Source: Intoshia linei (lineage: Eukaryota; Orthonectida; Rhopaluridae). From it: a stretch of DNA of 64,000 bases. Position 1 is the stretch's first letter. Every line of letters starts with the position of its first letter. Both the position numbers and the translations under genes were made by a program. The stretch lies in assembly GCA_001642005.1 (NCBI GenBank), contig LWCA01000017.1, positions 22,040 to 86,039 of the forward strand, given 5' to 3'. This document shows positions 3,001 through 18,322 of the stretch, piece after piece. The notes under the pieces were generated by a model. That model made no database searches and was not told the origin of the DNA. It saw only the letters and a program-made list of their open reading frames with translations.

Positions 3001-6000
3001 GGTTGATTTTTGGCTCATTTTTTTTTAAATAAACATGCAAATTGGGTTTTTGACCCTGAAGGATTGAAATTCTGAAACTAAAAAATGAATAAAAACATGT
3101 CCTGGGAAAAACGTTATTAGATACTGAGTTTTTTAAATCCTGCGACTGTTAATTTTTCAATAAATGGTTACACACACAGACATTTATTTTTATATAAGTG
3201 AAGGATTTGTATCTCAAAATCAGCAAATCAACCACCTTGCTCATAAATGATAAAAATTAAAGTATTATTATTAGTGATACTTAATCAAATCACCTGATTC
3301 CCACGTAAAGACCCGTAATCTGTATCGTCCTCGTTCACTATTAAATCGATACCATCCTTGAACGGTTGCATTATGTAGGAATTTATATTATTTGAATATT
3401 CTTGATATTCTTCTGATAAAGTTTTGTACATAGACATTTCATACAGTAGCAACTGATCTTCCCTGTCTCTTAAACCAAATTCAAATAACTAGGTAGCAGA
3501 TTTTATAGATTTTTTATCAAAATGAATATTATTAAAATTACTTTTAGTGTTTCAGGGTACACATCACATCGAACATATTTTATGAGGTCTGCAAATGTAG
3601 CTATATCTGATTGTTGTAAGTTGATAAAATTCATGCTTTGATAAAACATTTTTTCGTTTTTTTTCTTTTTTTTCTATTAAATTCAGTTTATGAACATGAT
3701 TACCTTTATATTATTAACTAATAAATTGATAAATTAAGTGTTTTATCTTAAACTGTGGCCACTGGACACTGCAGTGGCATTTGTCAACTTCTCTGTCGTA
3801 TGTAGTAATATTTATAGCACTGTAGGCTAGGTGTTAGTATATATCAATAGCTAATAGCTTAACTAATTTTTCGAAAAAAATGAAGGATTTATGAGAAATT
3901 TATGAGATTTCCACTCATATCTCTTTATTGGAAATGTGTAGACGTTCAATGCAAATTTTTTTTGAAATTGTCAGAGGATTATTTTACTTTTTCATTTTTA
4001 ATTTTAATCCAACAGTTGAAAAATATGGGTTGATAAAATAAAAATATTAAAAGTTATTTTTTACCCGGAATGTGTAGATTTCTGGGGTTGAAAATTTGTA
4101 TTTATATCAACTGGAATAAGCTGCATCTGAATAATCTTTTTTTTATTTATAGGACCGTTAATTATTTCAAATTGTTAGTTGTAATAAAATAGTTTCGAAA
4201 TAAAAAAAATAAATACTAAAGTGCCTTTTTGACCATAAAGGCGTAATTTTGTCAGATTGAATTTTTTGTGTGTTTGTTTACAAAATATAACACTATTATC
4301 TGTATTTTTTTTAGTAAATCTAGGATTATTTTCATTTTTAAAAAAAAAGGTAATTTGTGGTTTTGACCATGAAGGTGTGCGTTTCTGATGCTGAGATGTA
4401 CGACAATGTTAATGATTTTAAAACGCATCCCAGAATTTATATTTTATTAAATTTTTGGACTGATTTTATTTTTAAACAAAATAGAAAATTGGGTTTTTAA
4501 CCCTGACTAAATGACTAAATTCGGAAAATTTTTATAAAATTGGAATAATTTTTCCAAGTTAATGATTAAAAAATTATGTGCATATCAAGATTGAACATCA
4601 ACTATTTCTTTTGTTAAATTTAAAATATCAAGCAAAAGCCTTAGATTAGTGGTTTTAAAACTTTTTCAACCATAGACCACTTGTCACAAAAAAAAATGTG
4701 TGTAGACCACATAATTTTTTTAAAAAATCCCCTTAAACCTGAACACGTCACTAAGGTAATATTTTGATTTTTTTATTATATATTCCTCCTTAAATCAAAA
4801 ATTTTACATTAATTTTGACAAGGTAGCTTCAATGGCGTAATTAAAAAAATTCTTAATTTCAAACATACTTATTGCGAACTACCAGTGCCGTATGCGAGAT
4901 CCTTGCACCGAGGGATCTCGACGAAATTTTTTTAAAAATGGAGGCTTTAATTTATTAAATTGAGCATTAATAAAATTCTTGAATATGAACTAATTTGAGT
5001 GTTTAATTTAAAATGTCAACTCAAGAGTCTTAGAAAGGTGAATAGGGTTATATGACATTATAATTCGTTTACAACATTTTTTCATGGGCTATTTTTCATT
5101 TTTGAAGTGGCAACGGGTTTGCTAGGTTCGATTACTAAACTACTAAACTACTACCAATCGACGAAAACTACTACAGAACTAAGTTAAATCGTTGGATAGA
5201 TTAAATTTAACGCATGTAAAAATTATTCACGTTATTCAGTAAATTTTCACTTTATTTTGATTAAATGATGTTTACGTTCACTAATTAATAGTAAATAATA
5301 TTATTTATAATAGTATTATTAATTAATTATTATTGTTAAAAAAGGTTATATTCATGTTATTTAATTTTTTTTATTATATAACATGTTATATATTATTTTT
5401 TCTTATAGACCACCTATAATTTCCTGTGGACCACTTTGGCAACCACTGCCTTAAATAGATGTGTAGGTCTATATCAAGAATTTTCAACGGTTGGCGAATC
5501 GTCCCTTGGGAATAATTTTCTAATCTAGGGAAAATTTTTCTATTTTAATTCACAAATACATAATCTAATAAATTTTTTTAAGGTCAATAATTATTCTTCG
5601 TCATTAGATTAAAATGTTAAATTCCTTTCCTTAAATTTCATAGCTAAAATATCATACAAATATATCACAATTTTTACTTCATACAATTAACAAACACACA
5701 ATTCATACAAATGTCGATCTTACAATTTGTTGGGGTTTATTTGTAATTATTGGTGGTCCTAAGCTTGGCACATGTAGGTTCGCCTCTGCATATGTTTAAC
5801 ATAACTTATAAGGGAATTATACATTGTATATCAATTTGAAATAGTTTATCCATACAAAATATTCAATTTTCATATAATATTTAAATGAATCGCCCATGTT
5901 GAGAATCGCTATGTTAAATATTAATTATGTATCTTAGTATACTTAAGACATATAAAAGCTTTTAAAATGTAGTATAATTTGCGATATAAATTAAATTCAT

Positions 6001-10841: not shown

Positions 10842-13800
10842 TTAATAATAAGGACTTGCATTAAATAATTTTTGATTCCTGTTATATTTGTAGTGTAGTA
10901 TGATGTATATGCCATAAATTATTGGTATAAACAAAACGATATTGGCTACAACTATTCCAGTTATTTGAACATTATTATTTAGTGCAATATCAGATATAGT
11001 CGTGTAAAAGGCTCCAATTAAAAGTATCTACTTTAATATTATTAAAAATTATCAAAAATTGTTTGGTTCTACCAGCAACGTTAAAGGTGTGAGAAACATC
11101 CACATTATGGTCCATATTATGTTTAATTTGGATTGAAGCATTAATTCAATGTCTGCAACAAATCTTTTTATACCTAAAAAGCAGATTCAACAAAATATAA
11201 AATTAATCAAAAGTAGTTGTCATGCACCGGTGGGAGTTGGGGCTTGCAATCTAAATGTTATTTATTTAAATGTTAATGAATGAAATATGGTTTAAGACTT
11301 AAATTCAAGAGTTAGAGGTAACTCTCATACATGTATTCGTGATGGTTATCTTTGCTCATTTTACGTTAACTTAATGTACGTATTTTCGAATTTCTGTACC
11401 ATAAATGTACGCTACAGCAATCGTTTCACAAAGAGAAAAAAATATCATGGTAAATACAACGACATAATCGTTCAACATAAGTATTATGTAGTAGCCTGCC
11501 TAAATTTATCATTAAAAGTTTATTTAATTGTCATTACATCTGTAACGCAAATTATTCCGCAACAAAAAAATAAAAAGCATAGAGTAAAATTCAACAGTAT
11601 ATTAAATCGTCGTAATTTTGGAAATTGATCCAGTAAACTGCACGTTACAGTTTGAAGCATGGCAAACTAAAATTTACACTATTATTTATTATTTATGAAT
11701 AATAATATAATAAGTACAATGTACTTATAATATATATACTTATAGTACTTATAGTATATAAGTCTTATATACATAAACAGTATATAAAAATAATATACTT
11801 GCGAATCCATTCCAATTAATAATATAGTAAAGAAAAACATGACAGACCATAATTGAGGTATTTGCAGTTGAGACATTACAGCCGGAAATGCAATAAATAT
11901 TAATCCAATTCCTGTATATGAATATATCATAATTTGAATAATTATTATTAATAATACTAAACGTACCACTCTCGTTATCCACAATATGTATATCACTTCC
12001 AAGGTCATTGGCTAAATTACCCAACATTGCAAAAACTGATAATCCAAAAAATACACTAGATATACTAGTTACCAAAGGTACGATGATTGAATCCCTAAAA
12101 ATAAAAATGTTCATTGAGAATTTAAACTTATACCGACTTAAATTATTATGAAATTTATTGTAACTAGAATATGTTATTACTGCACCTAAAAAATAAAATA
12201 CATATAAACCAGAGGTGGCCAAATTATGGCCTGAAATGGTTATCTAACAAAATGCACTAAATGTTTGACATTTCCGACACGTATAATAAGATAAATTTCA
12301 ACCTTCAATTTCACATCTTAAGGGTCAAAAACCCCAGTTGTCCCCTCTTTTTGAAAATCAAACCAGTTGGAGAATTTAAAAAAATATATCTTCAGGGCTA
12401 AAACCCCAAATTACCCTTTTTTTAATGAAAAGAGCCCTAGAATTTAGAAAAATTTACAGGTGGTACAGTTGTATCCTGTTAATACACACAAAAAATTTCA
12501 ATCTGAATAAGTAACGTCTTCACGGTCAAAAAAGCATTTTAGTATTCATATATTTTTTTCTGAAATATTTTATTAAAACAAAAAATGTGAATAATTTAAA
12601 AAAAAGATTATTCTGATAGAACTTATTCCAGTTAATATAACTACGAAATTTCAACCCCAGCAATCTACGCATTCCCGGTGAAAAATAATTTTTAATATAT
12701 TATCAACCAATATTTTTCAAATATTTCGAATTAAAATAAAAATGTAAATATTGATCGCTACAATTTCAAAAAAAATGTGCATTGAACGACTACACATTTC
12801 CAATAAAGACCTACAATTTCAAAAAAAATGTGCATTGAATATCTACACATTTCCCATAAAGAAATATGGGTGAAAATCTATATAATTCATTCCTTCTGAT
12901 TTTTTTTCATTGCTACGCAATTTTTAAATTTGAAATTCTCATTTTTAAGTTACATTTTCAACGTGAATTTATTTTTTTAATATAATAAAAATGTGCCCTC
13001 GACAGAGCTAGGTGCTGTTTGTACGTAGTACATTACAGTCAACCTAGTATATAATATTTTATTACCGTAATTTATCCTTTCAGATCTGTTTTTAGCTGTA
13101 TCGTTTGCCAATTTGCACAAAATCAACGTAGCAGCATTTATTCTTTCCTCCAATGTACCTAAAAAATCAAAAATTGAAAAAATATCATCATCTACCTAAT
13201 AAAGTCAAAATTTTTTCAGGTAAAAAATCTGAATCTTTGCGACTAATACTTATTTCAGCTCCACTTATTTCTTTGATACGTAAAACAGACTCACCTTTCG
13301 AGCCAATAATTAGACCAGCGGTATGATTTGGAATAAGTATTTTAAGCTATCAATTCAAGTTAATATACAAACAATAAATATTTAAATGAATAATCTTGCA
13401 TTACCGTTTTACTTCTACCAATAAATTCTTGAGAATTATTGACTAATCCGGATCTTTCTTCGATAATTTTGCAAATATTGGTGACTGCACTGATAATGAA
13501 TTGAACATTTCCAAAAAGTAGCATGTATCTTTCATTTTCACCTATAATGTAATATTTTTCGAATTTATTTTAATTTTGATATAAATGTTAAACCTGGAAA
13601 CAAGTCTTTGTTTCTCGACATTTCCAAATGGATATTGTAATCTTTCTGCATTTGTGTTATAACATCCCCACCCTTTCCAATAATCGCTCCAGCAGCAAAA
13701 TGAGGTATTAAAATTTTCATGGAGAACTCTATAAATAATTTATACTGTTGATAGTGTTTCTTACTTTTCGACATATTGTCCAAATCATTTGGTTTATTTT

Positions 13801-16800
13801 ATTTACTCATTTTTTAATTTTGAAATTTTACTTTCAAATGTTGATATAAAGCTCCAATTGCAACTAAATTTTACAAAAATGATTATTTATAAATAATTTT
13901 TTAGAAAAAATTTCATTATCAAAACATTTATATAGATTTACTATATTGTGAGAAATTTGTTTATCTAACAAAAATTTATTATTTTAATCGATATCATTTA
14001 TTATGCAAACTTAATACAATATAAATACAATACAATGAAATGTTAACAATTTACAAATCTTTTTCAAACTACAAAATATGTAGGTTAACCATATTGGACC
14101 AAGAAAATTTTGAATTTTTTGAAATATACTCATATAGAGAAGTTTCTATCAGTGGTTCTTAAACTTAAAACTCCACGGTCTCATTTTTCAACTAAAATTT
14201 TTGTATAAAGTTATACTTTGAGTTCTAGACTGTAAAGATGCACATTTTATAATTTTAATGGTTTCGAGGGCACCAAATTTATCATGTATTCATATAAAAT
14301 TGAATGTGTTTGCGTGTACTTTTTAATTAAAAAATTAACCATCTAGAATTAAAAAGTCCAATTTTAATAGTTTTTCGAGAGTGATGTAAATTATCATTCT
14401 CAAACCTTAACCGTTCAGAGTAAAAAACCTAATTTACCCCGTTTTTTTATGTAAAAAGTCCTAGAATTTTAAAAACCATCAATTCTGATCACTTCTTTAA
14501 ATTATTTGTAATCTGCAAGTATTTATACTTGATATTGCAATAAATTTGATTGTAACAATTTAAGAAATATTTTTGGATAACAACTTATTATTTCATCGCG
14601 GGTATAAAAATGAAAACCCCTGATATACATCTGATTTAATGATTAAATATCTTAACATTTTCACCATTTTGTCAATTTGTTGGACAATTTTTTTAAAATG
14701 GGGCATCAATTTACTAATTGATAATTTAAAAATTTTTTGAATATCCTAACTTATATAATATGCTACGCGATTATTGTTTGTGTGTGTGTTCCATGTTATT
14801 AAAATAACTACCAGTCTTAGAATTTTATAAAGTTCACATTTCAATTTTAGTTATTTCCGGGCGTATAATAATATAAATTTTACATATTTTTAAATAATAA
14901 TAAATAAATTAATTAAATTAAATAAATTTTCCCAAACTCACATCTTACGGATCAAAAACCCCAATTGTCTCTCTTTTTGAAAATCAAACGAGTTGGAAAA
15001 TTTAANATCTATATGATTCATTCCTTCTCAATTTTTTTCATTGCTAAGCAATTTTTCAATCTCAAATTCTCATTTTCAAAACATTTTGTTTAAAATTTAA
15101 ATTAAAAGTACAACAACGAATAACTAATAGTAATACAAATTTGTTAATATCATTTTTATATTTATTAAAATTCTTTGCAATATTGAATAATTATCATTTG
15201 GATATTGGAATAAACAATTTCATATTAATGTAAATACTAAATTTCACCGGAAATTGAAAACACGCCTACATTTTTTGTTGAGCTATAGAATATGTCAATA
15301 TAATTGAATTTTATAATCATTGTGGCCCGCGAATTAATTAAACTAGTCACCACTGATATAAACATTGTAATAATAGTTTATTAATACCCAGACCGGTTCC
15401 CAAATTAAATATCATTTGATGTGCGGCTGTAATCCATACCTAGAAATAAGATAAATGAAAATTGAATGTACTCGCTATTTTAATTACTTTTATTTCCAAT
15501 AATTTTGAAACATTTGGTATTATGAAATATTTGAGACCTTTAACAGCTCCAGGTAATAAACCTGCTCTAATTGTAAATATCAAAAATATAACATATGGCA
15601 ATGTAGCTGTAACTTGCATAATCTAATTTCCTTAATATTTTAACTGACAAATTAAATACATACAAATGTATATAAAAGGTAAACATACTTTTCCACTATA
15701 TTGAACACCTTTAACCACACATATGAATGTTATAATCCAGACAAAAATGAGACATCCAAATAGGTGCCAGCAGACAAAATTAATATCAAAAAGTCCAGTT
15801 GATTTATTCAGCACAATTTCTCTAAATTTTGTACCAATTTTATTATCATATACATGTGCTTACGAATAAAATATTTTGCTGGCGTCGAAAAATGTGACAT
15901 TATGATGCTTATTATTCATACCTTGAATTTTTTCAATTGACCACGGTAAAGTTGGGAAAAATGAATATATGAAATAATAAAGCGCCCATGACATGATGAC
16001 ATTATAATAAATGCACAACATGGCTGAGGTTATTACCAATCCGTATCCAACACCTAATAAGAAATACAGTACAATGATAATTAAATTGAAATAATAAGAA
16101 TATTGAAATTTTTAATTTTTAAATCAGTTGATCAACATTAAATTTTTATAGCTCTATCCTTAGTAAGGATTTCTTACTTGGATCAATTACGAGTCACTTT
16201 TTTGTATTAGTATCTATTTGTTTGTGTGGAACCATTTATTTAGAAAACTGAGCGTCCAAGAATATTAAAAAACAAATTTTAAGTCGTCTTTTGTGACGCA
16301 AAAATGTGAGATAAATTTCACTCAGAAATTTTCATCTTCATAATCAAAAATTCTAATTAACATTTTTTTTAAAAAAAAAAACTTTGGAATTCTAGGCAAT
16401 TAAAGTCTTAAGGGTTAAAAAAGCACTTTAGAATTTTTTAATTTTTTTTTTGCAATAAAGTAATCTTGAAATTTATTAAAAAAAGTTTAATGTGATGAGT
16501 ATATTCCATTTGATCTATACCAATGCTTCCCGATTCCAATAGTGTAAGGAGTCCGTACTACCGATATCCATTTCAAAATATATTTTTTTTGACCTCAAAG
16601 GAAAAATCCTAACTTATATAATATGCTACGCGACTTTTGTTTATGTTTGTGTGTCTCTGTGTGTGTTCAGCTTTATTTAAATAACTACCCGTCTTAGAAT
16701 TTATAAAGTTCACATTTCAATTACAGTTTCTTCCGGGGGTGTTTGTAAACATAATTTCAACCTCCCAAACTCATATCTTACGGGTCAAAAACTCCAATTG

Positions 16801-18322
16801 TACCACTTTTTGAAAATCAAACGAGTTGGAGAATTTAAAAAAATTATATATTCAGGGCCAAAACCCCAAATTACCCTTCTTTTTTTAATGAAAACAGCCC
16901 TAGAGTTTCAAAAAAGCATTTTAGTATATATTCCCGATTCAAATAGTGTACGGAGTCCGTACTACGGACCCCCATTTCAAAATATTTTATTTTTTAGAGC
17001 TCAAAGTAAAAATGAAATATAAAACATTAATGGAAAAATCGTATTTTTCCAAAAAAATATTGGAAAAGGAGGATTTTCCCCTTAAGGGTTGGTAAAATTG
17101 TATTTTTTATTTTGTGGTTTTCAAATGGTATTTTTTAGTAAATTTCATTATGGTTAGATAAAAGTGGGATTTTCGAAATAATAATGATATTAATAATAAT
17201 AACAGTCGTCTAGGCTTAGAATAAACACTCAAAATCTGGCAACTTTGAAATAAATATTAAAAATTCTTCAATAAAAATAAAAAAAAGTTATTTAATAATT
17301 TTTTGTATATTTTATTTAAATCTCAGGGACCCCAGACATATACTCTTGGACCCATAGTGGGTAATACCAATCGGGAACCACTGATTTAGACAAAAATTTT
17401 TACATTCGAAATTCAAATATTCAAATTAAGTTAATTTATTTATTAAATTAAATTCAAATTTAAATTCGAAAAAATTTTAAAAAGTAATGAAATATAACTT
17501 TAATCTATTTTTGAAATAATAAAAATTTGAATCTACAATTTAATTAGTTTTCATAGCTAACTACTGAGACTACAAAGTAAATGACAGTACCCAACAGTCG
17601 AGCTGGTGTGAAGTGCCCAGTAAAATACGTACTATCACATTTAGTTTATTTGGAATAAATTTTAAGCCGAAAATTTTTATTCGTCATCATAGATAAGTAG
17701 TTTTGGCTTTACATTTATCAGCAATAAACTCAAATTGATAGTACGTATTTTTTCTGGCCACTTTAGCTTGTGTAATACATGGTATAATTTTATGCTGAAA
17801 AAACTAGGATTATTACCTTTAAATAAGGGGCAAATTTTCCATAGCGTTATCTAAATTGATGTAATTGACAATATTCTAATTATTACGGGACAATTACTAG
17901 AAAACTGTCCAAGAGATATTTCTAGTTTAAATAATGGAATTCCACATATTATAAGGAATATAAAGTATGGTATAAGGAATGCAGCTAAATGTTTGTTAAT
18001 ATTTAAATTCAAACGAGTTTTGACTTACCGCCTCCATTTTCATAGCATAAATAAGGAAATCGCCAAATATTACCTTAATTATGATATATTTACAATATTG
18101 TATATTCGAAAATTTAGTTAATCAATTAATAAATTATATGTAAGTAGAGTTACCTAACCCTACAGCGTACCCAATACATGAAAAAATAAATTGAAACTTG
18201 TTGCTCCAATTCTGACGGCTCAATATAGTGCTAGTATTACTAAACAATGCCATTGTACGTCGTTCAATGGATTTATTTATTTTAAAGCTTTTCTGGTCTT
18301 TTGATGCACACAGAGTTGGCAT
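10842..18322 (-). CDS. SLC6 (Na+/Cl- dependent neurotransmitter/amino-acid symporter), complete
   Basis: Fifteen exons: 18154-18322, 18029-18073, 17887-17984, 17817-17850, 15864-16053, 15689-15821, 15488-15622, 15394-15439, 12134-12185, 11967-12094, 11799-11911, 11538-11666, 11400-11499, 11073-11173, 10842-11027. All phases close and give 552 residues. Landmarks: TM1 AVGLGNIWRFPYLCYENGG, TM3 GYGLVITSAMLCIYYNVIMS, the loop-4/TM7 stretch GAVITYSSYNKFHNN, TM8 LGMDSQ-type GMDSQ, and twelve membrane spans. Family role: sodium- and chloride-coupled uptake of GABA, glycine or other amines across the plasma membrane. Glycine rather than aspartate at the TM1 site argues against a monoamine carrier; the exact substrate is open. 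Odd points: the GGG of TM1 is reduced to GG, and extracellular loop 2 is short and has no cysteine pair. Most introns are 36-80 nt; the two long ones are repeat-filled. Confidence 0.93.
12290..13047 (+). repeat. Dispersed modular repeat, copy with 3' hairpin tail
   Basis: Shows the module order of the family: 'gggtcaaaaaccccaattg', 'cagggctaaaaccccaaatt', 'ttcacggtcaaaaaagcatt', 'cattcccggtgaaaaata', then the tail CCCTCGACAGAGCTAGG to ACAGTCAACCTAG ending at 13047. It ends just before the last exon of the KH fragment. Confidence 0.7.
13066..13774 (-). CDS. NOVA/PCBP-like KH-domain RNA-binding protein, fragment inside transposon
   Basis: Four exons, 13594-13774, 13405-13541, 13196-13346 and 13066-13158, joined by introns of 52, 58 and 37 nt with consistent phases, encode about 187 residues from the ATG at 13774. 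KH1 has KILIPHFAAGAIIGKGG and KH2 has LKILIPNHTAGLIIGSKG, each followed by the typical LFPG or FLPE turn. Spacing and wording are closest to NOVA, a neuronal splicing regulator that binds YCAY RNA, but a PCBP-type origin is possible. KH2 reads GSKG instead of the usual GKGG. The reading frame is open to a donor at 13065, after which only a repeat and SLC6 exons follow, so KH3 is missing. It lies wholly between the ends of a hAT-like element, which suggests DNA-level capture with introns kept. Confidence 0.7.
14744..15005 (+). repeat. Dispersed modular repeat, 5' end
   Basis: Begins TCCTAACTTATATAATATGC, the same start as the copies at 16607, 21277 (minus) and about 53309, followed by a GTGTGTGTG run. 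It is cut by N at 15006. Within it, about 14881-14932 is a low-complexity taaat-rich insertion. Confidence 0.65.
15006..15006. other. Ambiguous base / contig join
   Basis: Single N at the exact point where identity with 22206-22330 ends. The SLC6 exon order and the 12202/15356 target duplication support the join as placed. Confidence 0.65.
16522..17383. mobile_element. hAT-like element containing a modular repeat
   Basis: Begins CAATGCTTCCCGATTCCAAT and ends AATCGGGAACCACTG, approximately inverted. Flanks ATCTATAC and ATTTAGAC are a decayed 8-bp duplication. A modular-repeat copy (from TCCTAACTTATATAATATGC at 16607 to about 16990) is nested inside, and a second piece of the hAT end type (CCCGATTCAAATAGTG) follows at 16933. 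It lies in the SLC6 intron 16054-17816. Confidence 0.5.

What the first reader, a model, noticed from the sequence alone, without database searches (positions are those of the whole stretch)
12202..15363. KH-domain gene fragment carried by a hAT-like element inside an SLC6 intron
Seen: hAT-like ends at 12210 and 15355 with a perfect 8-bp duplication ATATAAAC. Removing the block leaves a 54-nt intron, normal for this gene. Between the ends lie four open exons of a NOVA-like protein (KH1 and KH2) with three intact tiny introns and no KH3. Inference: genomic DNA, not cDNA, of an RNA-binding gene was captured and moved. An intact frame suggests either recent capture or use, possibly as a truncated regulator transcribed with the transporter.
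Basis: partly seen in the sequence, partly recalled or inferred. Interest (0 to 1): 0.75.

Follow-up and report, generated by a model that had tools for sequence, protein, structure and literature searches.

The report
NOVA gene piece inside hAT transposon
In the tiny parasitic animal Intoshia linei, a short transposon sitting in an intron of a transporter gene has had its middle replaced by a chunk of chromosome carrying most of an old, still readable RNA-binding (NOVA-type) gene, and the public gene model reads that piece as part of the transporter.

Summary
Confirmed, with corrections. In Intoshia linei, hAT ends at 12210-12284 and 15229-15355, with relatives elsewhere, and a perfect 8-bp duplication enclose ~2.95 kb in an SLC6 intron that is 48 nt without the block, not 54. 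The ends belong to a ~0.5-kb MITE whose interior is replaced. The filler is a NOVA-type gene from start codon to KH2, between two partial copies of an abundant Helitron-like repeat; one cuts the last exon and supplies the stop. A three-KH paralogue shares exon lengths 135/137/151 yet only 49% of the protein; both are about equally close to other NOVAs. So this is an old, long-constrained paralogue, not a fresh copy; no donor was found. Structure matches animal Pack-TIRs, probably made by gap filling in a resident MITE; movement by transposase is not shown. Public protein A3Q56_00346 already splices these KH exons into SLC6 in frame, omitting a transporter exon. RNA evidence was not available here. 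New member of a known kind; moderate interest.

The parts
12202..12209 (.). target-site duplication, left copy, ATATAAAC
   Evidence: identical to 15356-15363, 8 of 8
12210..12284 (+). left end of a hAT MITE (TIR CAGAGGTGGCCA)
   Evidence: 87-88% to C563, C1011, C895, C919; with the right end in short elements at C168, C1011, C895
12285..13047 (+). R1: 5'-truncated copy of an abundant Helitron-like repeat; 3' end CTAG at 13044-13047 followed by T
   Evidence: 132 matches from 40 scored of 4735 first-look candidates, most of them this repeat; 3' end aligned with 12 other copies; hairpin; 26 substitutions in 517 bases from the consensus
12977..13158 (-). last exon of the KH gene: end of KH2, then into the antisense end of R1, which supplies the stop codon (TAA, 12977-12979)
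13196..13346 (-). exon 4 (151 nt), start of KH2 with IIGSKG
   Evidence: same length and position as C8 exon 4
13405..13541 (-). exon 3 (137 nt)
   Evidence: same length as C8 exon 3
13594..13728 (-). exon 2 (135 nt), KH1 with IIGKGG; phase-1 acceptor that the public model joins to SLC6
   Evidence: same length as C8 exon 2; junction 15388/13728 reproduces P0008
13765..13774 (-). probable exon 1 (ATGTCGAAAA) with start codon
   Evidence: C8 starts ATGTCGGAAAA and also has a 36-nt intron 1; inference
13048..14743 (-). captured host DNA between the two repeat copies: KH gene and upstream flank; about 14240-14627 resembles another dispersed repeat
   Evidence: no other copy of the KH part found; repeat-like part (40 of 256 candidates scored)
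14744..15185 (+). R2: 5' part of a second copy of the Helitron-like repeat (A|TCCTAACTTATATAATATGC), with a probable assembly join (single N) at 15006
   Evidence: 5' ends aligned with 11 other copies; matches break at the N; N context
15186..15228 (.). unassigned 43 bp between repeat and hAT right end
   Evidence: matches to the repeat stop at 15185-15186 in several copies; hAT match starts at 15229
15229..15355 (+). right end of the hAT MITE (TIR ...TAGTCACCACTG)
   Evidence: 90% over 127 bp to C168
15356..15363 (.). target-site duplication, right copy
12186..15387 (-). phase-1 intron of the SLC6 gene that holds all of the above; 48 nt without the insertion
   Evidence: splice check

Best explanation
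This is a single-copy Pack-hAT (an animal Pack-TIR). A non-autonomous hAT MITE inserted into a 48-nt phase-1 intron of an SLC6 gene of Intoshia linei, making the 8-bp duplication (shown by anatomy). Its interior was then replaced, most likely by repair of a break with another chromosome site as template (inferred from the structure and from published cases). The template carried an old NOVA paralogue, from start codon to KH2, between two copies of a Helitron-like repeat; one of those copies had already cut off KH3 and gives the reading frame its stop (order inferred). The paralogue evolved under protein-level constraint for most of its history (shown). In its present place it lies in sense inside the transporter gene, and exons 2-4 are a 423-nt phase 1-1 cassette (shown); it is either translated as a small two-KH protein or now and then spliced into SLC6 RNA (both untested).
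For: TSD and hAT ends with relatives. Middle of the MITE absent from the window and unrelated DNA in its place (in one search the window matches the MITE query only at 344-461). Left junction: ACGTAT shared by hAT and repeat copies, by eye, not tested against chance; published Pack-TIRs have microhomology at one or more breakpoints in 190 of 281 (PMC8277862, section 8). Two further members of this MITE family carry inserts, with a TSD of 8/8 (C613) and 7/8 (C612) by eye; the C613 insert includes pieces of the same repeat. Constraint: exons 2-4 have the same lengths in C8 while introns differ (C8/window 36/36, 36/52, 39/58, 70/37 nt); differences at codon positions 1/2/3 are 67/49/94 over 171 codons, NG86 dN 0.475, dS 1.29; window and C8 match NOVA-1 at 60 and 62 of 161 sites and Blattella Nova at 52 and 53 of 122, and each keeps 42 of the 67 columns that the two outgroups share.
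Against: Gap filling copies and should leave a donor; none was found, though the assembly may be incomplete. About 60% of the MITE is missing (by hand), whereas published gaps have a median of 4.6% of the element, and the filler is far above the published median of 224 bp (PMC8277862, sections 8, 10). The right junction shows 43 unassigned bases. No orthologous locus was at hand to show an unfilled MITE. The order of KH3 loss and capture is inferred. The first exon is far shorter than in C8 (10 against 61 nt) and an upstream in-frame ATG is followed by a stop after three codons, which could be early decay. dS is near saturation and two other dN/dS methods failed. No expression data.
Confidence: 0.6

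Rival explanations
1. The KH cargo was captured elsewhere and the whole element was then moved into the SLC6 intron by hAT transposase (cut and paste), which would also explain why no donor remains.
For: Perfect TSD around the filled element; no donor found; hAT transposase dimerisation domains are present in the genome, 97 matches with 150 of 229 candidates scored.
Against: No second copy found; published single-copy animal cases are mostly ascribed to gap filling (PMC8277862). The TSD is expected under both histories.
Confidence: 0.22
2. Recombination between Helitron-like repeats: the MITE first gained a piece of the repeat (as C613 has), and the NOVA segment, flanked by direct repeats, then entered through the repeat.
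For: Both outer parts of the filler are the same repeat in the same orientation; C613 is a MITE of this family with pieces of the repeat inside; it would explain the missing donor.
Against: The repeat is so common that two breakpoints in or next to it are not surprising; needs two events; 43 unassigned bases at the right edge.
Confidence: 0.1
3. Decaying pseudogene: the KH fragment has no role and is intact only because the capture is young (this concerns function and can be true together with either origin).
For: The hAT ends are 3.5% from their small consensus (4 of 74 plus 3 of 126), an upper bound for the age of the capture; at 2% neutral change 12-18% of simulated copies stay intact. The first exon looks shortened.
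Against: The repeat that ends the frame is 5.0% (26 of 517) from its consensus; at 5% only 0.4-1.5% of simulated neutral copies keep frame and splice sites (4000 runs per setting, assumed 0.1 or 0.18 indels per substitution). So the form without KH3 was probably constrained for part of that time.
Confidence: 0.3
4. Native nested gene: a NOVA paralogue has always lived in this intron and the hAT ends are incidental.
For: The gene is old and no other copy was found; it lies in sense with its host.
Against: hAT ends and TSD sit exactly at the edges and the flanks close to a 48-nt intron, near the 57-bp median intron reported for I. linei (PMC6543705, passage seen).
Confidence: 0.05

Closest known systems
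Pack-TIRs of animals, hAT class (Tan et al. 2021, PMC8277862)
   Same: hAT ends with TSD around a non-transposon filler; single copy; short shared sequence at a breakpoint; filler partly exonic; same orientation as the host gene
   Different: Filler about 2.95 kb with a probable five-exon coding region against a published median of 224 bp; donor not found; filler bordered by a second repeat family; an orthonectid genome
Pack-TYPE elements of plants, hAT among them (PMC8903248, passages seen)
   Same: Non-autonomous TIR element carrying host gene sequence
   Different: Single copy here; their proposed route by tandem insertion and re-mobilisation was not examined here
NOVA (KH1-KH2-KH3 RNA-binding protein); I. 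linei A3Q56_01023 on C8
   Same: KH1 and KH2 with GxxG loops, intron positions, lengths of exons 2-4
   Different: KH3 and the long linker absent; first exon much shorter; 49% protein identity
I. linei A3Q56_00346, annotated 'Transporter' (P0008, 637 aa)
   Same: Contains these KH exons spliced in frame after the SLC6 exon ending at 15388
   Different: A gene model of unknown support; it leaves out GAVITYSSYNKFHNNLSR, uses a donor inside exon 5 (13128), and near its end lacks stretches that I had read as SLC6 coding by eye

Membership tests
hAT superfamily (non-autonomous) | 8-bp target-site duplication | tested here: met
   ATATAAAC on both sides, 8/8; relatives C613 8/8 and C612 7/8 by eye; C168 not clear-cut by eye
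hAT superfamily (non-autonomous) | TIRs of the CAGNGGTG type (motif recalled) shared with other copies | tested here: met
   CAGAGGTGGCCA / CAGTGGTGACTA; copies
hAT superfamily (non-autonomous) | a hAT transposase in the same genome that could mobilise it | tested here: inconclusive
   97 PF05699 matches; a link to this TIR family was not tested
Pack-TIR | TE interior replaced by host sequence with ends retained | tested here: met
Pack-TIR | parental copy of the filler elsewhere in the genome | tested here: not met
   only a 49% paralogue (C8) and a 337-bp fragment of that paralogue (C82); no DNA-level donor. The assembly may be incomplete; the Pack-TIR label rests on structure only
NOVA | KH1-KH2 pair with NOVA as best relative | tested here: met
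   2ann E 3.9e-26; Blattella Nova-1, the one hit among 69 candidates of suitable length
NOVA | third KH domain | tested here: not met
   frame stops at 12977 inside the repeat; KH_1 matches in the block only at KH1 and KH2
Helitron (for repeat R) | A|TC start and CTRR|T end with 3' hairpin | tested here: met
   among copies caught by a pattern, 8 of 8 starts follow A and 8 of 9 ends are CTRR followed by T; among the aligned copies some starts and ends deviate; the hairpin includes the CTAG, which is not typical (recalled)
Helitron (for repeat R) | Rep/helicase protein in the genome | tested here: inconclusive
   PF14214: no match here, but none in the 14 controls either

The most novel reading that the evidence does not exclude
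The hAT element is the only remaining home of an old NOVA paralogue in this animal, and the captured exons are used: the phase-matched KH cassette is spliced into the transporter RNA, as the public model A3Q56_00346 has it, or is read as a two-KH NOVA without KH3. Transposon repair would then have rescued a regulatory gene and placed it in a neurotransmitter-type transporter locus.
Probability: 0.2. Interest if true: 0.75.

Novelty: new member of a known kind. Interest (0 to 1): 0.5.

Why it matters
In the published animal set 13.4% of Pack-TIRs hold exonic sequence and the median filler is 224 bp (PMC8277862, section 10). Here a very reduced animal holds one with most of a gene, signs of long coding constraint, and a public gene model that fuses it to a transporter. 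It is a good case to test whether repair inside transposons can keep or relocate genes, and a warning that the annotated SLC6-KH protein may be a product of gene prediction.

Tried and rejected
Recent duplicate of the C8 gene: rejected, 59% nucleotide and 49% protein identity. Processed cDNA: rejected, introns at conserved places. C82 as donor: rejected; it is a 337-bp fragment 94% identical to C8, introns included (21 differences), and the element search showed no hAT end in the 8 kb fetched around it. Assembly artefact at the N of 15006: considered; the join lies in the repeat, but SLC6 exons and TSD match on both sides and the KH part is on the unbroken side. Linkage of NOVA with SLC6 on C8: an SLC6 gene lies on C8 at about 32-42 kb, NOVA at 8.2-9.6 kb; taken as chance, not tested. 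Helitron protein search (PF14214): nothing, uninformative. LWL85 and YN00 failed; only NG86 ran. No structure prediction was run, as the KH fold is clear from sequence. Dating rests on small sets (hAT left 6 rows, right 4 rows, R1 22 rows, window included); the 0.18 indel rate is 136 events to 735 substitutions, summed by hand from the 22 R1 rows, and includes alignment noise. Nothing in print on this case was seen in the listings (titles and abstract starts only); the I. linei genome paper (Curr Biol 2016) was not read. One genome search was left unused.
Full report
WHERE. The window is 64 kb of an 86,039-base contig (C869; length) of an assembly of 34,653,042 bases in 1319 contigs. A protein that I read from contig C8 of the same assembly is identical to A3Q56_01023 of Intoshia linei, so the species is I. 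linei, an orthonectid.

WHAT IS THERE. Reading the + strand: TSD ATATAAAC (12202-12209); left hAT end (12210-12284); 3' part of a Helitron-like repeat, R1 (12285-13047, ending CTAG|T); a NOVA-type gene on the minus strand (start about 13774, stop 12977) with upstream flank; 5' part of a second copy of the repeat, R2 (from 14744 to 15185, with a single N at 15006); 43 unassigned bases; right hAT end (15229-15355); TSD (15356-15363). The SLC6 intron is 12186-15387, and 48 nt without the block.

THE hAT FAMILY. Left and right ends occur together in short elements at C168, C1011 and C895; at C563 and C919 only the left end was seen. A search with the C1011 copy gave 49 matches, with 40 of 68 candidates scored; besides the query itself three loci (C1202, C168, C1162) cover more than 400 of its 473 bases at 79-85%. 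C613 and C612 carry inserts, and TSDs of 8/8 and 7/8 (by eye). In the window the middle of the MITE is gone and unrelated DNA lies there. The left hAT-repeat junction has a shared ACGTAT (by eye); I did not test this against chance.

THE REPEAT. The whole block brought up 4735 first-look candidates, of which 40 were scored with 132 matches, most of them in this repeat. Its ends were aligned in 12 (3') and 11 (5') other copies. The ends look like a Helitron, but PF14214 found no Rep/helicase protein, in a search where no control rang either, and the hairpin includes the CTAG. I call it Helitron-like. R1 is 5.0% (26 of 517) from its consensus. The matches of the block to R break at the N of 15006, and by eye the three Ns of the window lie in R, so this is probably an assembly join and R2 may be longer in life.

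THE GENE. The spliced protein is closest among solved structures to NOVA-1 KH1-KH2, and Blattella Nova-1 is the one hit among 69 candidates of suitable length (the C8 protein is too long to be a candidate there). A full NOVA with KH1-KH3 lies on C8. In my gene models the two share all four intron positions; exons 2-4 are 135, 137 and 151 nt in both, while intron lengths are 36/36, 36/52, 39/58 and 70/37 nt (C8/window). Exon 1 is 61 nt in C8 and 10 nt here. Over 171 codons the two differ at 67, 49 and 94 first, second and third positions; nucleotide identity 59%, protein 49%, NG86 dN 0.475 and dS 1.29. They are about equally far from NOVA-1 (60 and 62 of 161) and Blattella Nova (52 and 53 of 122). 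So both lines stayed under constraint and neither is a recent copy of the other. The frame of the window copy runs through KH2, past 13047 into R1 read backwards, and stops at 12977.

DONOR. A search with 13066-14290 alone gave nine candidates, all scored, with ten matches; apart from the window itself none reaches the KH exons. The protein search gave eight matches: the window, C8, C82 and a weak C613. C82 is a 337-bp piece of C8 at 94%.

SELECTION SINCE THE LOSS OF KH3. If R1 cut the gene when it inserted, about 5% neutral change has passed. In simulation 0.4-1.5% of neutral copies keep frame and splice sites at 5%, 2-6% at 3.5% and 12-18% at 2% (0.18 or 0.1 indels per substitution). This favours constraint for part of that time. 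It does not show selection after capture, because the capture may be younger than both clocks (R1 and the hAT ends, 7 of 200).

THE PUBLIC MODEL. A3Q56_00346 (P0008, 637 aa, on a contig of 86,039 bases) carries PF00209 and PF00013. Its KH region is reproduced by joining 15388 to 13728, KH exons 2-4, part of exon 5 (13158-13128), and then 12094. It leaves out the exon GAVITYSSYNKFHNNLSR, which splicing 15388/12185 keeps in frame and which resembles the conserved SYNKFHNN stretch of SLC6 transporters (recalled). Near its end it also lacks stretches that I had read by eye as SLC6 coding. I therefore think it more likely a prediction than the working transporter; but exons 2-4 are a phase 1-1 cassette of 423 nt, so an in-frame fusion is physically possible.

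COMPARISON. Tan et al. (PMC8277862; abstract, outline, sections 8 and 10 and some passages read) list 370 Pack-TIRs in 100 animal genomes, 208 of them hAT (passage of section 7); single-copy ones are mostly ascribed to gap filling, with microhomology at one or more breakpoints in 190 of 281, and the median filler is 224 bp. The window element fits in structure; it is larger, has lost more of the MITE than is usual, and lacks a found donor. Plant Pack-TYPE elements (PMC8903248, passages seen) are the other relative. I. linei introns have a median of 57 bp (PMC6543705, passage seen), so a 48-nt empty intron is normal.

VERDICT. It is ordinary in kind (Pack-hAT) and unusual in size, age and intactness of its cargo. 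Function is open.

Noticed in passing
L038 3840-4176 (C82:16340-16676): A 337-bp fragment of the C8 NOVA gene, 94% identical and with introns, stands apart: another DNA-level copy of part of this gene; what carried it is unknown.
   Followed up: partly
L037 about 4685-4800 (C8, just after the NOVA stop codon): A short stretch with inverted ends like CAGAAGTGGCC / GGCCACTTCTA lies about 50 bp downstream of the full NOVA gene (by eye).
   Followed up: no
window 8259, 15006, 22205: The three single Ns of the window lie in the same Helitron-like repeat by eye; they look like joins between assembly pieces with gaps of unknown length.
   Followed up: partly
window about 16600-17000: The SLC6 gene seems to hold a further copy of the Helitron-like repeat in another intron (by eye in the display).
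   Followed up: no
L061 and L062 (C612:17800-19000, C613:57650-58550): Two further MITEs of this hAT family with foreign inserts, C613 with pieces of the same repeat: filling of MITEs may recur in this genome.
   Followed up: partly
C8:32358-42234: An SLC6 gene (betaine/GABA transporter, P0094) lies on the same contig as the full NOVA gene, starting about 23 kb from it.
   Followed up: partly
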